The notes under the pieces were generated by a model. That model was not told the DNA's origin, did no database searches, and saw nothing but the letters and a program-made list of their open reading frames with translations. Below are positions 446 to 5,323 of a stretch of DNA of 7,899 nt, piece after piece. Origin of the DNA: Labilithrix luteola. Lineage in GTDB: Bacteria > Myxococcota_A > Polyangia > Polyangiales > Polyangiaceae. The DNA lies in contig JAMFST010001323.1 of assembly GCA_026225435.1 (NCBI GenBank), positions 1-7,899 of the forward strand. Direction: 5' to 3'. Position 1 is the first letter of the stretch; every line of letters starts with the position of its first letter. The translations under genes and the position numbers were made by a program.

Positions 446-1444
446 TCAGAAGGTCGCGGTCAGCGTGCCGCCGGTGAGGCCTGGTTGCAGGACCAGGCCG
501 GTGGTGCTCGCGTTCTTCTTCGGCGGGCGCAGTACGAAGTACATGGTCGTGCCCGCGCCGATGATGGCGGCGGCACCGACGATATCGGTCGCCAGCGCCA
601 GCGAGCGCACCTTGGTGCGCGCGTCGTTGACCGCCCCCTGGGTGGTCGGGAACTGATCGAGAGCGCTGTCGTAGTCGTGCCGTGCGCCCAGCGTGAGGAT
701 GCCCAGCACCGTCGTCGCCGCGACCAGGCCGACGGTGGCCGAGCCGGCGATCCACATGGGCGTGCGCGACGGCGCAGGGGGCGGCGGCGCGGCTTCGAGA
801 GGCGCCGGCTGCACCACGGCGACGGGCACCAGCGGCGCCGGCGCGGGGGCGCGCGGCAGCTCGAGGTTCACCGTCAGGTGATCCGCCCCCGCGACCTCCA
901 GCGTACGCGAGACGGTGCCACGCCCTTCGAGTGTCGCGGTGATGCGTCGCTGGCCGCTGCTCACGCGCACCGGCGCGCGCAGCGGCGTCGTGCCGGCGGG
1001 GACATCGTCGATCGCCACGCTGGCGCCATCGGCATCGACGGTCACCGTGAGGTAAGCCATGCGGGCCTCGAGCTTGAGCAGATCCTCCGTCACCTGCGTG
1101 CGCCGCGCCGCGGGGATCTGCGTGCCGCCCTGATCGAGGTACCCCTGGAAGGCGTCGTGCGCCCCGACGTAGTCCTGGAGCTCGAAGTACGTCTGCCCGA
1201 GGTTGTAGAGAATGCGGTAGCTGGGCGCGATCTCGTTGGCGCGGCGGAACTCGATCAGCGCCGCGCGGTAGTCCTGGTCGCGAAACAGGTCCACGCCGCG
1301 GAGGAAGTGGGTGCGCCCCTCGGCCAGCGCGCTCGCCGTGGGCTTGTCTTGCGCCGAGGCGACGTCGCACGGCAGGGTGACCGTGGCGGCCAGTGCGGCG
1401 CAGAGGAGCCCGCGAAGAATCACGTCCGTCGAGAGGAAGCTCAC
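446..1444 (-). CDS. TPR and PEGA domain membrane protein
   Basis: 332 residues. The N-terminus looks like a Sec signal peptide with hydrophobic core LLCAALAATVTL and a likely cleavage after ASA at residue 31. Residues about 43-105 hold two TPR-like helix pairs (DYRAALIEFRRANEIAPSY; LGQTYFELQDYVGAHDAF). Residues about 131-195 fit a PEGA beta domain (YLTVTVDADGASVAIDDVP, GTTPL, GQRRITATLEG). A Pro/Ala-rich linker (198-227) leads to two hydrophobic segments, about 231-252 and 285-305, and a short tail ending in TF. TPR domains mediate protein contacts; PEGA is a surface-layer or envelope-associated beta fold often found beside myxobacterial Ser/Thr kinases. The start is GTG at 1442-1444, overlapping the kinase stop as GTGA, so translation is very likely coupled. 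A role as scaffold or partner of the kinase is inferred from context. No enzymatic motif is visible. Confidence 0.87.
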   Translation of the reverse strand: MSFLSTDVILRGLLCAALAATVTLPCDVASAQDKPTASALAEGRTHFLRGVDLFRDQDYRAALIEFRRANEIAPSYRILYNLGQTYFELQDYVGAHDAFQGYLDQGGTQIPAARRTQVTEDLLKLEARMAYLTVTVDADGASVAIDDVPAGTTPLRAPVRVSSGQRRITATLEGRGTVSRTLEVAGADHLTVNLELPRAPAPAPLVPVAVVQPAPLEAAPPPPAPSRTPMWIAGSATVGLVAATTVLGILTLGARHDYDSALDQFPTTQGAVNDARTKVRSLALATDIVGAAAIIGAGTTMYFVLRPPKKNASTTGLVLQPGLTGGTLTATF

Positions 1445-2943
1445 GGTGCGTACGGGTCCTTGTCGTCGACGGTGCGAGACGGGTGCGAGGTGGGCGCCGA
1501 ATGGTTGTGGCTGGTGTGCCCCGGGCTCGGCAGCTGCCCGACGTTACCCGGAGCGCTCGCCGGTGTCGCTGGCGAGGTGGACGGTGGTGACGGCGGTGAC
1601 GCGGCATCCGCCGGGTCCGCCGCTCGCGTCACGGATGGCGCCGACGTCGAGCTGGCTGCCTGCGCGCCGGGTAGCGTGACGACGCTGGAGTCGTGGGCGG
1701 CGGCCGCCGCCGGCATCGACGTCGACGGGGCCAGCGGCTGCGAGGGGCGCGTGGCGAACCGCGCGCTGGCGATGGCGGCGATGGCGATCGGGAGGATCAC
1801 CGCAGCCGCGATGGCCGCCTTGGACCCCGGTCGCGACGTCCGCGGGCCGATCGTCGCCTGCTCGACCGCCGAGATGACCCCGTCGTCGTGGGAGCTTCCT
1901 CCCCCGCGCGACCCCGTCGTCTCCTTGCCGAGCTCCACCAGCATGATGTTGCTGTTCGACGTCGCCGCGCTGATCTGCTGCTCGATCACCGTGCGGAGGC
2001 GCTCGCGTTGCTGGACGAACGCGTCGCTCACCAGCCGACCGAGATCACGCGGCCGCGCGGCGAGGCTGCGGCTCTCCAGGTACGCCTCGAGCGCCTCCTG
2101 CATCTCCTGCGCGCTGGCGTAGCGATCCTGCGCGGAGAAGGCGACGGCGCGCAGGCAGATGGCAACCAGCTCCTGATCCGCGTCCGGCTTGTGCACCAGC
2201 GGGCTCTCCACCGGAGTGGAGATGCGCCTCTGCAAGGTGACCACCTCCGAGGAGTCGCCCGCGTTGAGCCGCCGCCCGGTGATCGCCTCCCAGAGCATCA
2301 CGCCCACGGCGAAGATGTCCGTGCGGGCGTCGACCGGCTCGCCGAGCGCCTGCTCGGGCGCCATGTAGCTGATCTTGCCCTTGATCACCCCGGTGGTGGT
2401 GCTGTGCGACGCGTGCACCGTCTTGGCGATGCCGAAGTCCATCAGCTTCACCTGCCCGTCGTAGGTGACGAAGACGTTGGGCGGCGAGACGTCGCGGTGG
2501 ACCACGCCGAGCGGTGTGCCGTCGTAGTCGGTCAGCTCGTGAGCGCTCTGCAGCCCCGCCAGCACCAGCGTGAGCACACGAACGCGCAGATCGAGCGGGA
2601 ACGACTCCTTCAGCCGACCGGTCACCCGGTGGAGCGGCTGGCCGTCCAGGTACTCCATCGTCAGGAACTGCTGCGCGTCGTCCTCACCGACCTCGTACGT
2701 CTGGACGACGTTGGGGTGGTTGAGCCGTGCGGCGAGACGGGCTTCGTCGAGGAACATCGCGCGAAAGCTCTCGTCGTCGGCGAGCAGCGGGCGCAGCACC
2801 TTGCACACGAGGAGCTTGTTGAATCCCGCGGGCCCTTGCGCGACCGCGAGGTACACCTCCGCCATCCCACCACTGCCGAGGGTGGCGATCAGTCGGTAGC
2901 GACCGACCGTGCTCGGACGTCGTTCCGGAGCCAGTGCCGACAC
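1441..2943 (-). CDS. Transmembrane Ser/Thr protein kinase (Hanks type)
   Basis: 500 residues. The cytoplasmic kinase domain spans about 15-290 and all catalytic elements are present: glycine loop GSGGMAEV (23-30), ATP-anchoring Lys48 in VCKVL, alpha-C Glu67 in FLDEARL, catalytic loop HRDVSPPN with Asp151 and Asn156, DFG at 169-171, APE at 195-197 and Asp209 in the F helix. It should be an active kinase. A linker (300-375) precedes one membrane helix at about 376-394 (AAIAAAVILPIAIAAIASA). The remaining 105 residues are Pro/Ser/Thr/Ala-rich with no recognisable sensor such as PASTA or WD40, and end in DKDPYAP. The start is GTG at 2941-2943; an in-frame TAG at 2947-2949 excludes a longer protein. 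A GGGG (2956-2959) lies 12 nt upstream and AGGAGA (2961-2966) 17 nt upstream, both rather distant for ribosome binding. Its 5' end is shared with the lipoprotein gene upstream. Confidence 0.95.
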   Translation of the reverse strand: MSALAPERRPSTVGRYRLIATLGSGGMAEVYLAVAQGPAGFNKLLVCKVLRPLLADDESFRAMFLDEARLAARLNHPNVVQTYEVGEDDAQQFLTMEYLDGQPLHRVTGRLKESFPLDLRVRVLTLVLAGLQSAHELTDYDGTPLGVVHRDVSPPNVFVTYDGQVKLMDFGIAKTVHASHSTTTGVIKGKISYMAPEQALGEPVDARTDIFAVGVMLWEAITGRRLNAGDSSEVVTLQRRISTPVESPLVHKPDADQELVAICLRAVAFSAQDRYASAQEMQEALEAYLESRSLAARPRDLGRLVSDAFVQQRERLRTVIEQQISAATSNSNIMLVELGKETTGSRGGGSSHDDGVISAVEQATIGPRTSRPGSKAAIAAAVILPIAIAAIASARFATRPSQPLAPSTSMPAAAAAHDSSVVTLPGAQAASSTSAPSVTRAADPADAASPPSPPSTSPATPASAPGNVGQLPSPGHTSHNHSAPTSHPSRTVDDKDPYAP

Positions 2944-2960
2944 GGGCTAAGAATACCCCA
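2904..2960 (-). repeat. Shared gene-start block, kinase copy
   Basis: On the minus strand this block reads TGGGGTAT (2953-2960), nine bases, GTG start (2941-2943), then TGGCTCCGGA (2924-2933) and CGTCCGAGCACGGTCG (2904-2919). The same pieces occur in the same order at the start of the lipoprotein gene 1 kb upstream (3895-3942). The GTG is exactly nine bases from TGGGGTAT in both. Relative to the lipoprotein copy, this copy has two extra codons after the GTG and one extra Arg codon between the last two pieces, so the reading frame is kept. The peptide is LAPERRPSTVGR here. Confidence 0.85.
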
Positions 2961-3022
2961 TCTCCTACGCCAACGACGTGAACCGCGAAAACTGGAAGCA
3001 AAAACGGGTTACCTGGCACCGG
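2944..3022 (-). promoter_or_regulatory. Leader and possible promoter of the kinase gene
   Basis: A 79-nt gap between the lipoprotein stop and the kinase start, visibly richer in A/T than the genes around it. Read toward the kinase it holds a T run (TTTTTGCTTCC, about 2995-3005), an AGGAGA at 2961-2966 and TGGGGTAT at 2953-2960. TATTCT (2950-2955) could be a -10 element; its distance would place the first transcribed base close to the GTG, giving a leaderless or nearly leaderless message. No good -35 is visible at 16-18 nt. The T run follows only a very weak GGT/ACC stem, so a terminator is not supported. Confidence 0.3.
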
Positions 3023-3925
3023 CTACGGGCTGGGCGCGAGCGTCATGTACGTGAACTGACCGGCGCTGATGTTTCCCGTCGCCACTCCGATGCGCTGACC
3101 GGTCGCCAGCAGCGTCGCGGTGACCACCAGAGGCCCGGTAGGGACGTTGATGGCGACGTAGCTGGCTTCGGAGTCCGTCTCGGTCGCGGAGCTGCTCGGG
3201 AGCCCGCCGACCAGGTACGTCTGCACCGTGTTGGCGGCGACATGGTCGAGGTCGAGGTGGACACCGGCGGCGTCGCCGAGGTTGCAATCGTCGGTGCCGA
3301 TGAAGAGATGTCCGAGCGTCGGATCGACCGCCATCCCGTTGCCGGCCACGGCGACCACGTCGCTGAACTCCGAGCTGGTGACCAGGTCCGAGTCGGTGAG
3401 CGGGTTGCTGTTGACCTGAGGTGGGTTGATGTAGACGACCGTCGGGTAGCTCTGCGACCAGCCCACCTGGAGGAACCCGTCGAAGCCGCCGGGGACCTGC
3501 AAGCTGAAGAAGCCATCCGCGCCGGTGACCGCCTGCGGGGCGAGGGGGGCGGCGCACGCGAGATCGAGCTTGGCGCACGGGACCACCGTGATGCCGGGGA
3601 TCGGCGCGTCGTTGACGGCGTTCAGGAACGGGAAGGTGAGGGTGACGTTGCCCGCGGGTGGGTCCGGGACGGCGACGTGGCCCAGGCAGCTCCACGGACC
3701 TGTCGCTGCGTCCCCGGCAGCCGCGTCGGAGGCGCTCGCCACGCAGACGTTGGCCACGCAGGAGGCGCCCGCGAACCCGCGCGCCGCGCATTCACCGTCG
3801 CTCGCGCACTGGTCGTCGCTGACGTTCTCGATCAACGAGCACGAGCTGAGCCCGCCGAACGCTGACGCCGCCGCCACCGCGAGAACAAGCCGAGCGACCG
3901 TGCTCGGACGATCCGGAGCCAACAC
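3023..3925 (-). CDS. Lipoprotein with Cys module and carboxypeptidase-regulatory-like domain, downstream paralogue
   Basis: 300 residues from GTG at 3923-3925. A TTG at 3947-3949 would add eight residues, but the GTG matches the kinase GTG in the shared start block. The n-region LAPDRPSTVAR is followed by a hydrophobic core (LVLAVAAASAFGG) and lipobox LSSC (Cys29), predicting a lipid-anchored envelope protein. Next comes a short four-cysteine module (Cys40, 46, 56, 61) with the pattern QCxxDGxCxARGFxGAxCVxNVC, a small Ala/Asp-rich spacer, and WSCLGH leading into beta-rich sequence. The segment NVTLTFPFLNAVNDAPIPG through GADGFFSLQVPGGFDGFLQV resembles a carboxypeptidase regulatory-like (transthyretin-type) fold. 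The remainder (DPTLGHLFIGTDDCN, ATGQRIGVATGNISAGQFTY) is unassigned. It is about three quarters identical by eye to the adjacent upstream gene. No catalytic residues are recognised and function is unknown. Confidence 0.85.
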   Translation of the reverse strand: MLAPDRPSTVARLVLAVAAASAFGGLSSCSLIENVSDDQCASDGECAARGFAGASCVANVCVASASDAAAGDAATGPWSCLGHVAVPDPPAGNVTLTFPFLNAVNDAPIPGITVVPCAKLDLACAAPLAPQAVTGADGFFSLQVPGGFDGFLQVGWSQSYPTVVYINPPQVNSNPLTDSDLVTSSEFSDVVAVAGNGMAVDPTLGHLFIGTDDCNLGDAAGVHLDLDHVAANTVQTYLVGGLPSSSATETDSEASYVAINVPTGPLVVTATLLATGQRIGVATGNISAGQFTYMTLAPSP

Positions 3926-3942
3926 CCTGCGACGATACCCCA
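3895..3942 (-). repeat. Shared gene-start block, lipoprotein copy
   Basis: This is the second copy of the block found at the kinase start. On the minus strand it reads TGGGGTAT (3935-3942), nine bases, GTG (3923-3925), TGGCTCCGGA (3912-3921) and CGTCCGAGCACGGTCG (3895-3910). The peptide is LAPDRPSTVAR, directly followed by the hydrophobic signal sequence. In the kinase family, residues like RPSTVGRYRLI normally lead into the first kinase strand. In a lipoprotein they have no evident purpose, which suggests that the kinase is the source of the block and the lipoprotein the recipient. Confidence 0.85.
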
Positions 3943-3951
3943 GAAGCAACT

Positions 3952-4842
3952 TCAGGGGCTAGGGACGAGGGTGAGGTAGGTGAACTGACCCGCGCTGATA
4001 TTTCCCGTGGCCACGCCGATGCGCTGGCCGGTCGCCGCGAGCGTGGCGGTGACCAGGAGAGGCCCGGTGGGGACGTTGACGGCGACGTAGGTGCCTTCCG
4101 AGTCCGTCTCGGTCGCGTCGCTGCTCGGCAGGCCGTTGACGAGGTAGGCCTGCAGGGTGTTGGGCGCGGTCCGGTCGAGCGCGAGGTGGACCCCGGCAGC
4201 GTCGTCGAGGTTACAGTCGCCGGTGCCGATGAAGAGATGGCCCAGCGTGGGATCGATGGTGTCGCCGACGATGGCGACCACCTCCTCGAACTCCGCGGTC
4301 GTGACCAGGTCGGTGTCGTCCTGGGGTGTGTCGTTGACCTGCGGGGGGTTGATGTACACCGAGGTGGGGTTGCTCAGGGACCAGCCCACCTGCAGGAAGC
4401 CGTCGAAGCCGCCGGGAACCTGGAGGCTGAAGAAGCCGTTCGCGTCGGTGACCGTCTGCGGTGCGAGGGGGGCGGCGCAGGCCAGATCGAGCTTGGCGCA
4501 CGGGAGCACCGTCACGCCCGGGATCGGCGCGTCGTTGACGGCGTTCCACAGCGGGAAGCTCAGGGTGACGTTCCCCGCCGGCGCCGCCGGCAAGACCACG
4601 TGGCCGAGACAGGACCAGATACCGGCGTCCGCGTCGGCCTCCGCGTCGACGACCGGGCTCGGCGCCACGCACACGTTGGAGACGCAGGTGGCGCCAGAAA
4701 AGCCGCGGGCGGAGCAGTCGCCGTCGGTCGAGCACTGATCGTCGCTCACCCGCTCGAGGAGCGAGCAGCTGCTGGCGACCGCCACGAGGCCGAGCCCCAG
4801 GCACACGATCACTCCGGGCCCCCCCGTCGGAGTCACCGCCAC
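3952..4842 (-). CDS. Lipoprotein with Cys module and carboxypeptidase-regulatory-like domain, upstream paralogue
   Basis: 296 residues from GTG at 4840-4842, which lies 4 nt after the bfr stop. The frame stays open to a TTG at 4891-4893, which would overlap bfr by 47 nt. That longer form would add a Lys/Arg-rich n-region, which the short form lacks, so the start is uncertain. The hydrophobic core VIVCLGLGLVAV ends in SSC (Cys26 in the short form), with Ala at -3 instead of the preferred Leu. Then follow the four-Cys module (QCSTDGDCSARGFSGATCVSNVC), an acidic Asp/Ala spacer (VVDAEADADAG), WSCLGH, and the same beta-rich domain as the downstream copy. It is predicted to be lipid-anchored in the envelope; function is not recognised. 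Its stop at 3952-3954 is 26 nt before the GTG of the second copy. The close spacing to bfr suggests co-transcription. Confidence 0.85.
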   Translation of the reverse strand: MAVTPTGGPGVIVCLGLGLVAVASSCSLLERVSDDQCSTDGDCSARGFSGATCVSNVCVAPSPVVDAEADADAGIWSCLGHVVLPAAPAGNVTLSFPLWNAVNDAPIPGVTVLPCAKLDLACAAPLAPQTVTDANGFFSLQVPGGFDGFLQVGWSLSNPTSVYINPPQVNDTPQDDTDLVTTAEFEEVVAIVGDTIDPTLGHLFIGTGDCNLDDAAGVHLALDRTAPNTLQAYLVNGLPSSDATETDSEGTYVAVNVPTGPLLVTATLAATGQRIGVATGNISAGQFTYLTLVPSP

Positions 4843-4846
4843 GGAA

Positions 4847-5323
4847 TCAGTCTTCTTTGCGGATCTGCTGCGCCTGGTAGGCCACGAAGCCAAGCTGGCG
4901 AATCAGCTCCTGCTGCGTCTCGATCCAGTCGACGTGCTCTTCCTCGGCCGTGAGGATGTTGGTGAGCAGGTCCTCGGTGCCGTTGTCCCCGAGGTCACGG
5001 CAGAGCTTGATGCCGTTGTTCAGGCGGACGATGGCGTCGTACTCGACCTGCGCGTCGTTCTTGAACTGCTCCTCGACCGTCTCGCCGATGTTCAAGTGTC
5101 CGAGGCGCTGGAGGTTGGGGACGCCGTCGAGGAAGAGGATGCGGTCGATGAGCCGCTCCGCGTGCTTCATCTCGTCGATGCTCTCGTCGCGGACGTACTT
5201 TGCCAGCTTGAGGTAACCCCAGTTCTGCAGCATCTTCGCGTGCAGGAAGTACTGGTTGATCGCCGTCAGCTCGGCGGTCAAAACCTCGTTGAGCAGCGTG
5301 AGGACCTGCGGGTTGCCCTTCAT
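4847..5323 (-). CDS. bfr: Bacterioferritin
   Basis: 158 residues, the usual length for the family. Bfr forms a 24-subunit cytoplasmic shell that oxidises Fe(II) and stores it as a ferric mineral. All ferroxidase ligands are at the standard positions: Glu18, Glu51, His54, Glu94, Glu127 and His130. Met52, the axial ligand for haem between subunits, is present, as is Tyr25. The N-terminus MKGNPQVLTLLNEVLTAELT fixes the start at ATG 5321-5323; the frame stays open upstream to 5524 but that part is only out-of-frame bfd sequence. No Shine-Dalgarno sequence is visible before the ATG (TCGTCCTTCTC), so translation may depend on coupling to bfd, whose stop is 26 nt upstream. The C-terminus (QQIRKED) ends 4 nt before the probable GTG of the first lipoprotein gene. 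Confidence 0.97.
   Translation of the reverse strand: MKGNPQVLTLLNEVLTAELTAINQYFLHAKMLQNWGYLKLAKYVRDESIDEMKHAERLIDRILFLDGVPNLQRLGHLNIGETVEEQFKNDAQVEYDAIVRLNNGIKLCRDLGDNGTEDLLTNILTAEEEHVDWIETQQELIRQLGFVAYQAQQIRKED

What the first reader, a model, noticed from the sequence alone, without database searches (positions are those of the whole stretch)
2904..3942. A lipoprotein gene appears to have captured the start region of the neighbouring kinase gene
Seen directly: the kinase (start 2943) and the downstream lipoprotein (start 3925) share collinear identical pieces on the minus strand: TGGGGTAT, then exactly nine unmatched bases, GTG, TGGCTCCGGA, and the 16-mer CGTCCGAGCACGGTCG. The length differences inside the coding part are 6 and 3 nt, so both stay in frame and encode LAPERRPSTVGR and LAPDRPSTVAR. 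The upstream lipoprotein paralogue lacks this sequence. Inference: the tandem duplication ran from the lipoprotein signal region into the first codons of the kinase that follows it. Each new lipoprotein copy would then begin with kinase start signals fused in frame to a signal peptide. The order lipoprotein, block, lipoprotein, block, kinase is what such an event predicts. This would be a small, datable example of a gene gaining a new N-terminus and start site from its neighbour.
Basis: partly seen in the sequence, partly recalled or inferred. Interest (0 to 1): 0.75.

Follow-up and report, generated by a model that had tools for sequence, protein, structure and literature searches.

The report
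Lipoprotein start copied from neighbouring kinase
In a draft bacterial genome that likely belongs to the myxobacterial family Polyangiaceae, the second of two adjacent predicted lipoprotein genes carries at its predicted start a short block that also opens the next gene, a protein kinase, and it most likely acquired that block when a tandem duplication ran past the lipoprotein gene into the kinase's first codons, a natural case of a process known from the laboratory.

Summary
On the minus strand, kinase (GTG 2943) and lipoprotein 2 (LP2, GTG 3925) share TGGGGTAT, a 9-base spacer, GTG, TGGCTCCGGA and a 16-mer, with in-frame indels. The alignment scores 46 against at most 35 in 2000 shuffles; the exact 16-mer has two places in the 6.8-Mb draft genome, both here. 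In 17 fetched loci from 15 related genomes a lipoprotein lies directly upstream of the kinase, and in none does its start resemble the kinase start. A leader motif is in 0 of 53 lipoprotein and 3 of 127 kinase N-termini, including the two closest readable kinases and one beside a leader-less lipoprotein. So the block is kinase-native. The kinase-derived peptide VLAPDRPSTVAR forms the n-region of LP2's predicted signal peptide, which would be removed on maturation. LP1 and LP2 look constrained (dN 0.16, dS 0.54). The geometry matches Staphylococcus aureus sigH short-junction duplications (PMC3486894). Not shown: LP2's start codon, the junction repeat, any close single-copy relative. Novelty: a new natural member of a known kind.

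The parts
1441..2943 (-). Serine/threonine kinase gene (500 aa from GTG 2943), donor of the block
   Evidence: Pfam Pkinase E 3.4e-34; N-terminus matches P0008 and P0010
2904..2960 (-). Kinase copy of the block: TGGGGTAT, 9-nt spacer, GTG and the first 13 codons
   Evidence: alignment score 46 against LP2 start
2944..3022 (-). Gap between LP2 stop and kinase GTG, 79 nt; presumed original of the LP1-LP2 gap
   Evidence: shares TTGCTTC with the LP1-LP2 gap, chance 0.023
3023..3925 (-). LP2, chimeric predicted lipoprotein gene (300 aa from GTG 3925; alternative starts TTG 3949 and TTG 3922)
   Evidence: signal peptide and lipobox LSSC by inspection; tree
3890..3925 (-). Kinase-derived n-region of LP2's predicted signal peptide, VLAPDRPSTVAR
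   Evidence: leader motif absent from 53 other lipoprotein N-termini
3895..3942 (-). LP2 copy of the block
   Evidence: exact 16-mer at 2 places only in the draft genome
3842..3889 (-). LP2 hydrophobic stretch and lipobox up to the residue before Cys, read as lipoprotein-derived (inference)
   Evidence: no significant match to the kinase P-loop region (0.20 of shuffles reach it); resembles RLVLA of the G002 lipoprotein (L064)
3926..3951 (-). Gap between LP1 stop and LP2 GTG, 26 nt, presumed shortened copy of the LP2-kinase gap
3952..4842 (-). LP1, upstream paralogue without the block (start uncertain: GTG 4842, GTG 4836 or TTG 4893)
   Evidence: 76% identical to LP2 at protein level; sister of the LP2 clade
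446..1444 (-). TPR plus PEGA-domain protein, third gene of the cassette, overlapping the kinase by 4 nt
   Evidence: Pfam TPR_2 and PEGA; after the kinase in 16 of 17 comparison loci

Best explanation
LP2 is a predicted lipoprotein gene whose predicted first codons and the stretch just before them match the start of the neighbouring kinase gene, and it most likely arose when a tandem duplication running from the lipoprotein signal-peptide region through the gap into the kinase's first codons fused the kinase start in frame to a second lipoprotein copy. Before the event the order would have been lipoprotein, kinase, PEGA gene, as in relatives (their order is shown, the ancestry is inferred). 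The duplicated unit would have run from just after the lipoprotein's start codon, through its stop codon and the gap, into about codon 15 of the kinase. The result is original lipoprotein (LP1), chimera (LP2), intact kinase. The kinase's cytoplasmic leader would now serve as the positively charged n-region of LP2's predicted signal peptide; signal peptidase II would cut it off at the lipobox LSS|C, so the mature lipoprotein would be unchanged, which can explain why the fusion was tolerated. LP2 would be translated from the captured GTG 3925, with the kinase's GGGGT-like ribosome-binding site at the same distance (predicted, untested). The gap before LP2 would have shortened later (inferred).
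For: Shared block far above chance. Lipoprotein body, gap and block are contiguous and in the order a single tandem duplication gives; LP bodies 77-83% identical in three ungapped stretches. Leader motif in the kinases P0008, P0010 and L121 but in 0 of 53 lipoprotein N-termini. Lipoprotein directly upstream of kinase in 17 loci of 15 related genomes, 16 of the 17 also with a PEGA gene further on in the fetched stretch (L117's contig ends first), with no kinase-like start on that lipoprotein (max z 2.0 in 17; window 9.4). The kinase-derived piece coincides with the n-region: VLAPDRPSTVAR, then hydrophobic LVLAVAAASAFG. LP1/LP2 mature parts dN 0.16, dS 0.54. GGGGT pairs with the recalled 16S tail at -6.1 kcal/mol and the same spacing before both GTGs.
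Against: No close relative with a single lipoprotein copy was found; the comparison lipoproteins are about 28-38% identical, and I fetched 36 stretches chosen among the better hits, not every hit. The DNA upstream of the close LP2 homologues P0001 and P0002 could not be read, and their called starts lie after the place of the leader, so they cannot show it; they are counted among the 53. LP1's own N-terminus does not align with LP2's, so the lipoprotein-side breakpoint cannot be placed. The Shine-Dalgarno energy is not special by itself: 13% of 163 ATG/GTG on the minus strand and 24-31% of shuffles reach it. The gap homology outside the block is only a 7-mer (0.023). P0004 falls outside LP1 plus LP2 in the tree (85/81); where the LP2 clade is uniform, LP1 agrees with it against P0004 at 51 sites, with P0004 against it at 15, and stands alone against both at 11, so the history of copies may be more complex and neither copy is clearly the more derived. 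LAP-type leaders are rare in kinases at large (3 of 127). The lipoprotein of L118 scores 32 with the leader peptide (window kinase 41), through an arginine-rich TVAR stretch, though its DNA does not match its kinase (z 0.5).
Confidence: 0.82

Rival explanations
1. The lipoprotein pair was already duplicated, and a later short gene-conversion or template-switch event copied only the kinase start onto LP2.
For: The block (38 of 42 positions identical over 14 hand-paired codons, leaving out the spacer and the gapped codons) is somewhat more alike than LP1/LP2 third positions (12 of 14 against 65%), as a younger event would give; P0004 may be an older tandem copy.
Against: The LP1-LP2 gap shares TTGCTTC with the LP2-kinase gap, in the order a tandem duplication predicts; one duplication explains body, gap and block together; 14 codons are too few to date.
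Confidence: 0.12
2. The reverse: the kinase took its leader from the lipoprotein.
For: The block alone has no direction.
Against: Kinases P0008, P0010 and L121 carry the leader motif; lipoproteins do not (0 of 53); (T/S)(V/I/L)G(R/K)YRLI is a usual kinase lead-in to the glycine loop in the list.
Confidence: 0.02
3. The block is a shared regulatory or generic motif (for example a promoter or ribosome-binding element) that arose separately before two genes.
For: TGGGGTAT plus exactly nine bases plus GTG is spaced like an initiation signal, and both copies also read TATnnT six bases before GTG.
Against: Similarity continues through the first 12 codons of LP2 with in-frame indels; the exact 16-mer is found nowhere else in the draft genome; the other lipoprotein-kinase pairs lack it.
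Confidence: 0.02
4. Assembly artefact of a draft metagenome contig.
For: Draft genome of 1502 contigs, 80% complete; the whole contig is 7899 bases.
Against: The two block copies differ by substitutions and indels, LP1 and LP2 differ at 17-23% of bases in aligned stretches, and other data sets hold LP2-like proteins (P0001, P0002) and the leader-bearing kinase P0008.
Confidence: 0.02

Closest known systems
Staphylococcus aureus sigH short-junction tandem duplications (nusG'-'sigH, rplK'-'sigH), PMC3486894 (passages read)
   Same: A tandem duplication fuses the first codons of a downstream gene in frame to early codons of the upstream gene, keeps both parents, and replaces the native translation start.
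   Different: There it was seen in selected clones, with 7-8 bp junction repeats still visible and fusion proteins shown by Western blot. Here it is an old, diverged natural case, the donor piece is about 15 codons, it would act as a signal-peptide n-region, and expression is untested.
Promoter capture by tandem duplication (Salmonella his genes, Anderson and Roth 1978; E. coli citrate transporter), as cited in PMC11111574 (passages read; the cited papers not seen)
   Same: A duplication junction gives a gene copy a neighbour's expression signals.
   Different: Those are described as promoter captures; here start region and coding sequence moved.
Deletion-born gene fusions in bacteria, PMC12803068 (title and start of abstract in the listing only)
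   Same: New chimeric genes from joined gene fragments.
   Different: Made by deletion; here both parent genes remain.

Membership tests
Short-junction tandem-duplication chimera (sigH type) | Tandem second copy of the upstream gene | tested here: met
   LP1 and LP2 adjacent, 83, 82 and 77% identical over 300, 300 and 112 nt
Short-junction tandem-duplication chimera (sigH type) | Middle gene starts with the downstream gene's first codons, fused in frame | tested here: met
   LP2 block against kinase, score 46; frames kept; that translation starts there is not tested
Short-junction tandem-duplication chimera (sigH type) | Intact parents flank the chimera | tested here: inconclusive
   Kinase domain complete; LP1 is an open frame but its N-terminus is not alignable and its start is uncertain
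Short-junction tandem-duplication chimera (sigH type) | Short direct repeat at the junction | tested here: inconclusive
   The lipoprotein-side parent sequence is too diverged to align
Short-junction tandem-duplication chimera (sigH type) | Downstream gene's initiation signals drive the chimera | not testable with these tools
   Same -6.1 kcal/mol site at the same spacing before both GTGs, but not above background
Bacterial lipoprotein | Signal peptide with lipobox and Cys | tested here: met
   By inspection LSS|C after a hydrophobic stretch with mean hydropathy 2.22 over 12 residues; no signal-peptide predictor was available
Bacterial serine/threonine kinase | Protein kinase domain | tested here: met
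   Pkinase 118.9 bits, cut-off 31.7

The most novel reading that the evidence does not exclude
A kinase's cytoplasmic leader, with its ribosome-binding site, start codon and spacing, has become the working translation start and signal-peptide n-region of an exported lipoprotein, and selection has kept this borrowed export signal since before LP2's lineage split from its nearest relatives.
Probability: 0.45. Interest if true: 0.55.

Novelty: new member of a known kind. Interest (0 to 1): 0.4.

Why it matters
Tandem-duplication chimeras are documented as fresh mutants under laboratory selection; natural cases where donor, chimera and original still lie side by side and can be read are scarce to my knowledge (recalled, not searched exhaustively). 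This one also suggests why signal peptides may be easy landing sites: the borrowed part would be cut off, so the mature protein is spared. It gives a testable rule: look for lipoprotein or secreted paralogues whose n-region matches the next gene's first codons.
Full report
Setting. The window is one whole contig (7899 bases) of a draft genome (6.8 Mb, 1502 contigs, 80% complete). Its family is probably Polyangiaceae: one member of the same family group, G060, has a contig of 16,040,666 bases, the length given for Minicystis rosea under P0032 and P0096, and that species is placed in Polyangiaceae, Myxococcota; this is inference. On the minus strand the genes run sigma factor, RsmI-like methyltransferase, BFD-like protein, ferritin, LP1, LP2, kinase, TPR/PEGA protein (the sigma factor and RsmI names are my own reading of the sequence).

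Observation. The shared pieces are exactly where stated. The two start regions align with score 46; the best of 2000 shuffled pairs is 35. The repeat finder lists the same match as families D6 and D9. The exact 16-mer has two places in the draft genome, both here; two one-mismatch places lie elsewhere. LP1 has no such block.

Which gene owned the block. The closest kinase with a readable N-terminus, P0008 (92% identical), starts MGYAQTVSALAPERRPSTVGRYRLI; P0010 (70% over 60% of the kinase) starts MSSDLAPERPRTIGRYLLI; P0009, between them in rank, is called from inside the glycine loop and says nothing. The TVGRYRLI part resembles the usual lead-in to the kinase glycine loop in the list. A motif for the leader was found in 3 of 127 kinase N-termini (P0008, P0010, L121; 27 from fetched loci, 100 from the database) and 0 of 53 lipoprotein N-termini (29 from loci, 24 from the database), window genes left out. 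Two of the 53, P0001 and P0002, are called from after the place of the leader and cannot show it. L121 is telling: one lipoprotein upstream without the leader, kinase with it. The block is therefore kinase-native.

The cassette. Searching LP2 in 108 held family genomes gave 31 (own included) with a match at E 1e-15, and the LP alignment in 183 held order genomes gave 29 (own included) at 1e-30. I fetched and mapped 37 LP-bearing stretches, the window's own contig included, chosen among the better hits. In 18 a lipoprotein lies directly upstream of a kinase: the window and 17 others, from 15 genomes (G068 and G092 give two each; G044 is of another family of the order). In 16 of the 17 a PEGA gene follows in the fetched stretch. 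In all 17 the lipoprotein start does not resemble the kinase start (16, L112; best z 2.0, L117, reached by 4.7% of its shuffles; window 9.4, reached by 0 of 300). Other loci show kinase-PEGA-lipoprotein order (L067, L074, L075, L126), kinase-lipoprotein-PEGA (L065) or lipoproteins on both sides of the kinase (L072).

Mechanism. A single tandem duplication from the lipoprotein signal region into the kinase's first codons gives the present order and leaves three marks: a homologous lipoprotein body, a gap before LP2 that copies the gap before the kinase, and the kinase start on LP2. The first and third are strong. The second is weak outside the block: a shared 7-mer, chance 0.023. LP2's gap is 26 nt against 79, so a deletion would have followed. 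The fusion point lies around Arg: kinase STVGR then YRLIA; LP2 STVAR then LVLAVAAASAFGGLSSC. One relative's lipoprotein reads VNRLVLAMLPLLLAAEGC (L064), which suggests the hydrophobic part is lipoprotein-derived; kinase P-loop DNA does not match it significantly. This residue-level placement is inference.

How it would work. With GTG 3925 the n-region is VLAPDRPSTVAR (two Arg, one Asp), followed by a hydrophobic stretch and lipobox LSS|C. The kinase-derived piece and the n-region coincide. Signal peptidase II would remove it (established knowledge of bacterial lipoproteins). TGGGGTAT could be the ribosome-binding site: GGGGT pairs with the 16S tail (recalled) at -6.1 kcal/mol, at the same spacing before both GTGs, which would explain why spacer length is kept while spacer sequence is not. 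Against this, 13% of the 163 ATG/GTG on this strand and 24-31% of shuffles reach that energy. TTG 3949, two bases after the LP1 stop, would instead give MLLGYRRRVLAPDRPSTVAR; TTG 3922 is also possible. The kinase's upstream ATG is blocked by TAG, so the start implied by the P0008 record is doubtful or lineage-specific.

Age and selection. LP1 and LP2 mature parts give dN 0.16, dS 0.54, so both copies seem constrained. In the tree LP2 groups with P0001 and P0002 (100/99), LP1 is sister, and P0004 falls outside (85/81). P0002 and P0004 both come from a contig of 2270 bases, so they are probably neighbours. At sites where LP2, P0001 and P0002 agree, LP1 sides with them against P0004 at 51, with P0004 against them at 15, and differs from both at 11. 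At the 15, the outgroup majority agrees with LP1 at 9, with LP2 at 0 and with neither at 6. So the LP2 clade changed at some sites, but neither copy is clearly the more derived.

Known kind. S. aureus sigH duplications have the same geometry, with nusG or rplK first codons fused to sigH (PMC3486894, passages read). Promoter capture by tandem duplication is also established (PMC11111574, passages read, citing Anderson and Roth 1978). So this is a natural, aged member of a known kind, with the added feature that a cytoplasmic leader would have become a signal-peptide n-region.

Noticed in passing
window 446-4842 and L064, L066, L068, L070, L071, L077, L108, L109, L111-L113, L115, L118, L120, L121: Lipoprotein, kinase and TPR/PEGA protein form a recurring cassette in this family and order; the gene order varies in other loci. 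The one literature search for it listed only an unrelated paper.
   Followed up: partly
window 4836-4893: LP1's start is also odd: from GTG 4842 its n-region has no Lys or Arg; from TTG 4893 it would read the 3' end of the ferritin gene in another frame and gain five. LP1 may itself have an improvised N-terminus.
   Followed up: no
window 2943-2961: The kinase's upstream ATG is followed by an in-frame TAG while the P0008 record starts at what looks like the equivalent ATG; the database call for this kinase (P0007, 474 aa) starts inside the glycine loop and is probably too short.
   Followed up: partly
P0128 and P0130; L072; L073: Other lipoprotein pairs: P0128 and P0130 share a contig length of 103,001, L073 has two adjacent copies, L072 has one on each side of the kinase. 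The family seems prone to local duplication.
   Followed up: no
window 1441-1444: Kinase stop and PEGA-gene GTG overlap by four bases, suggesting coupled translation.
   Followed up: no
[not shown]
   Followed up: partly
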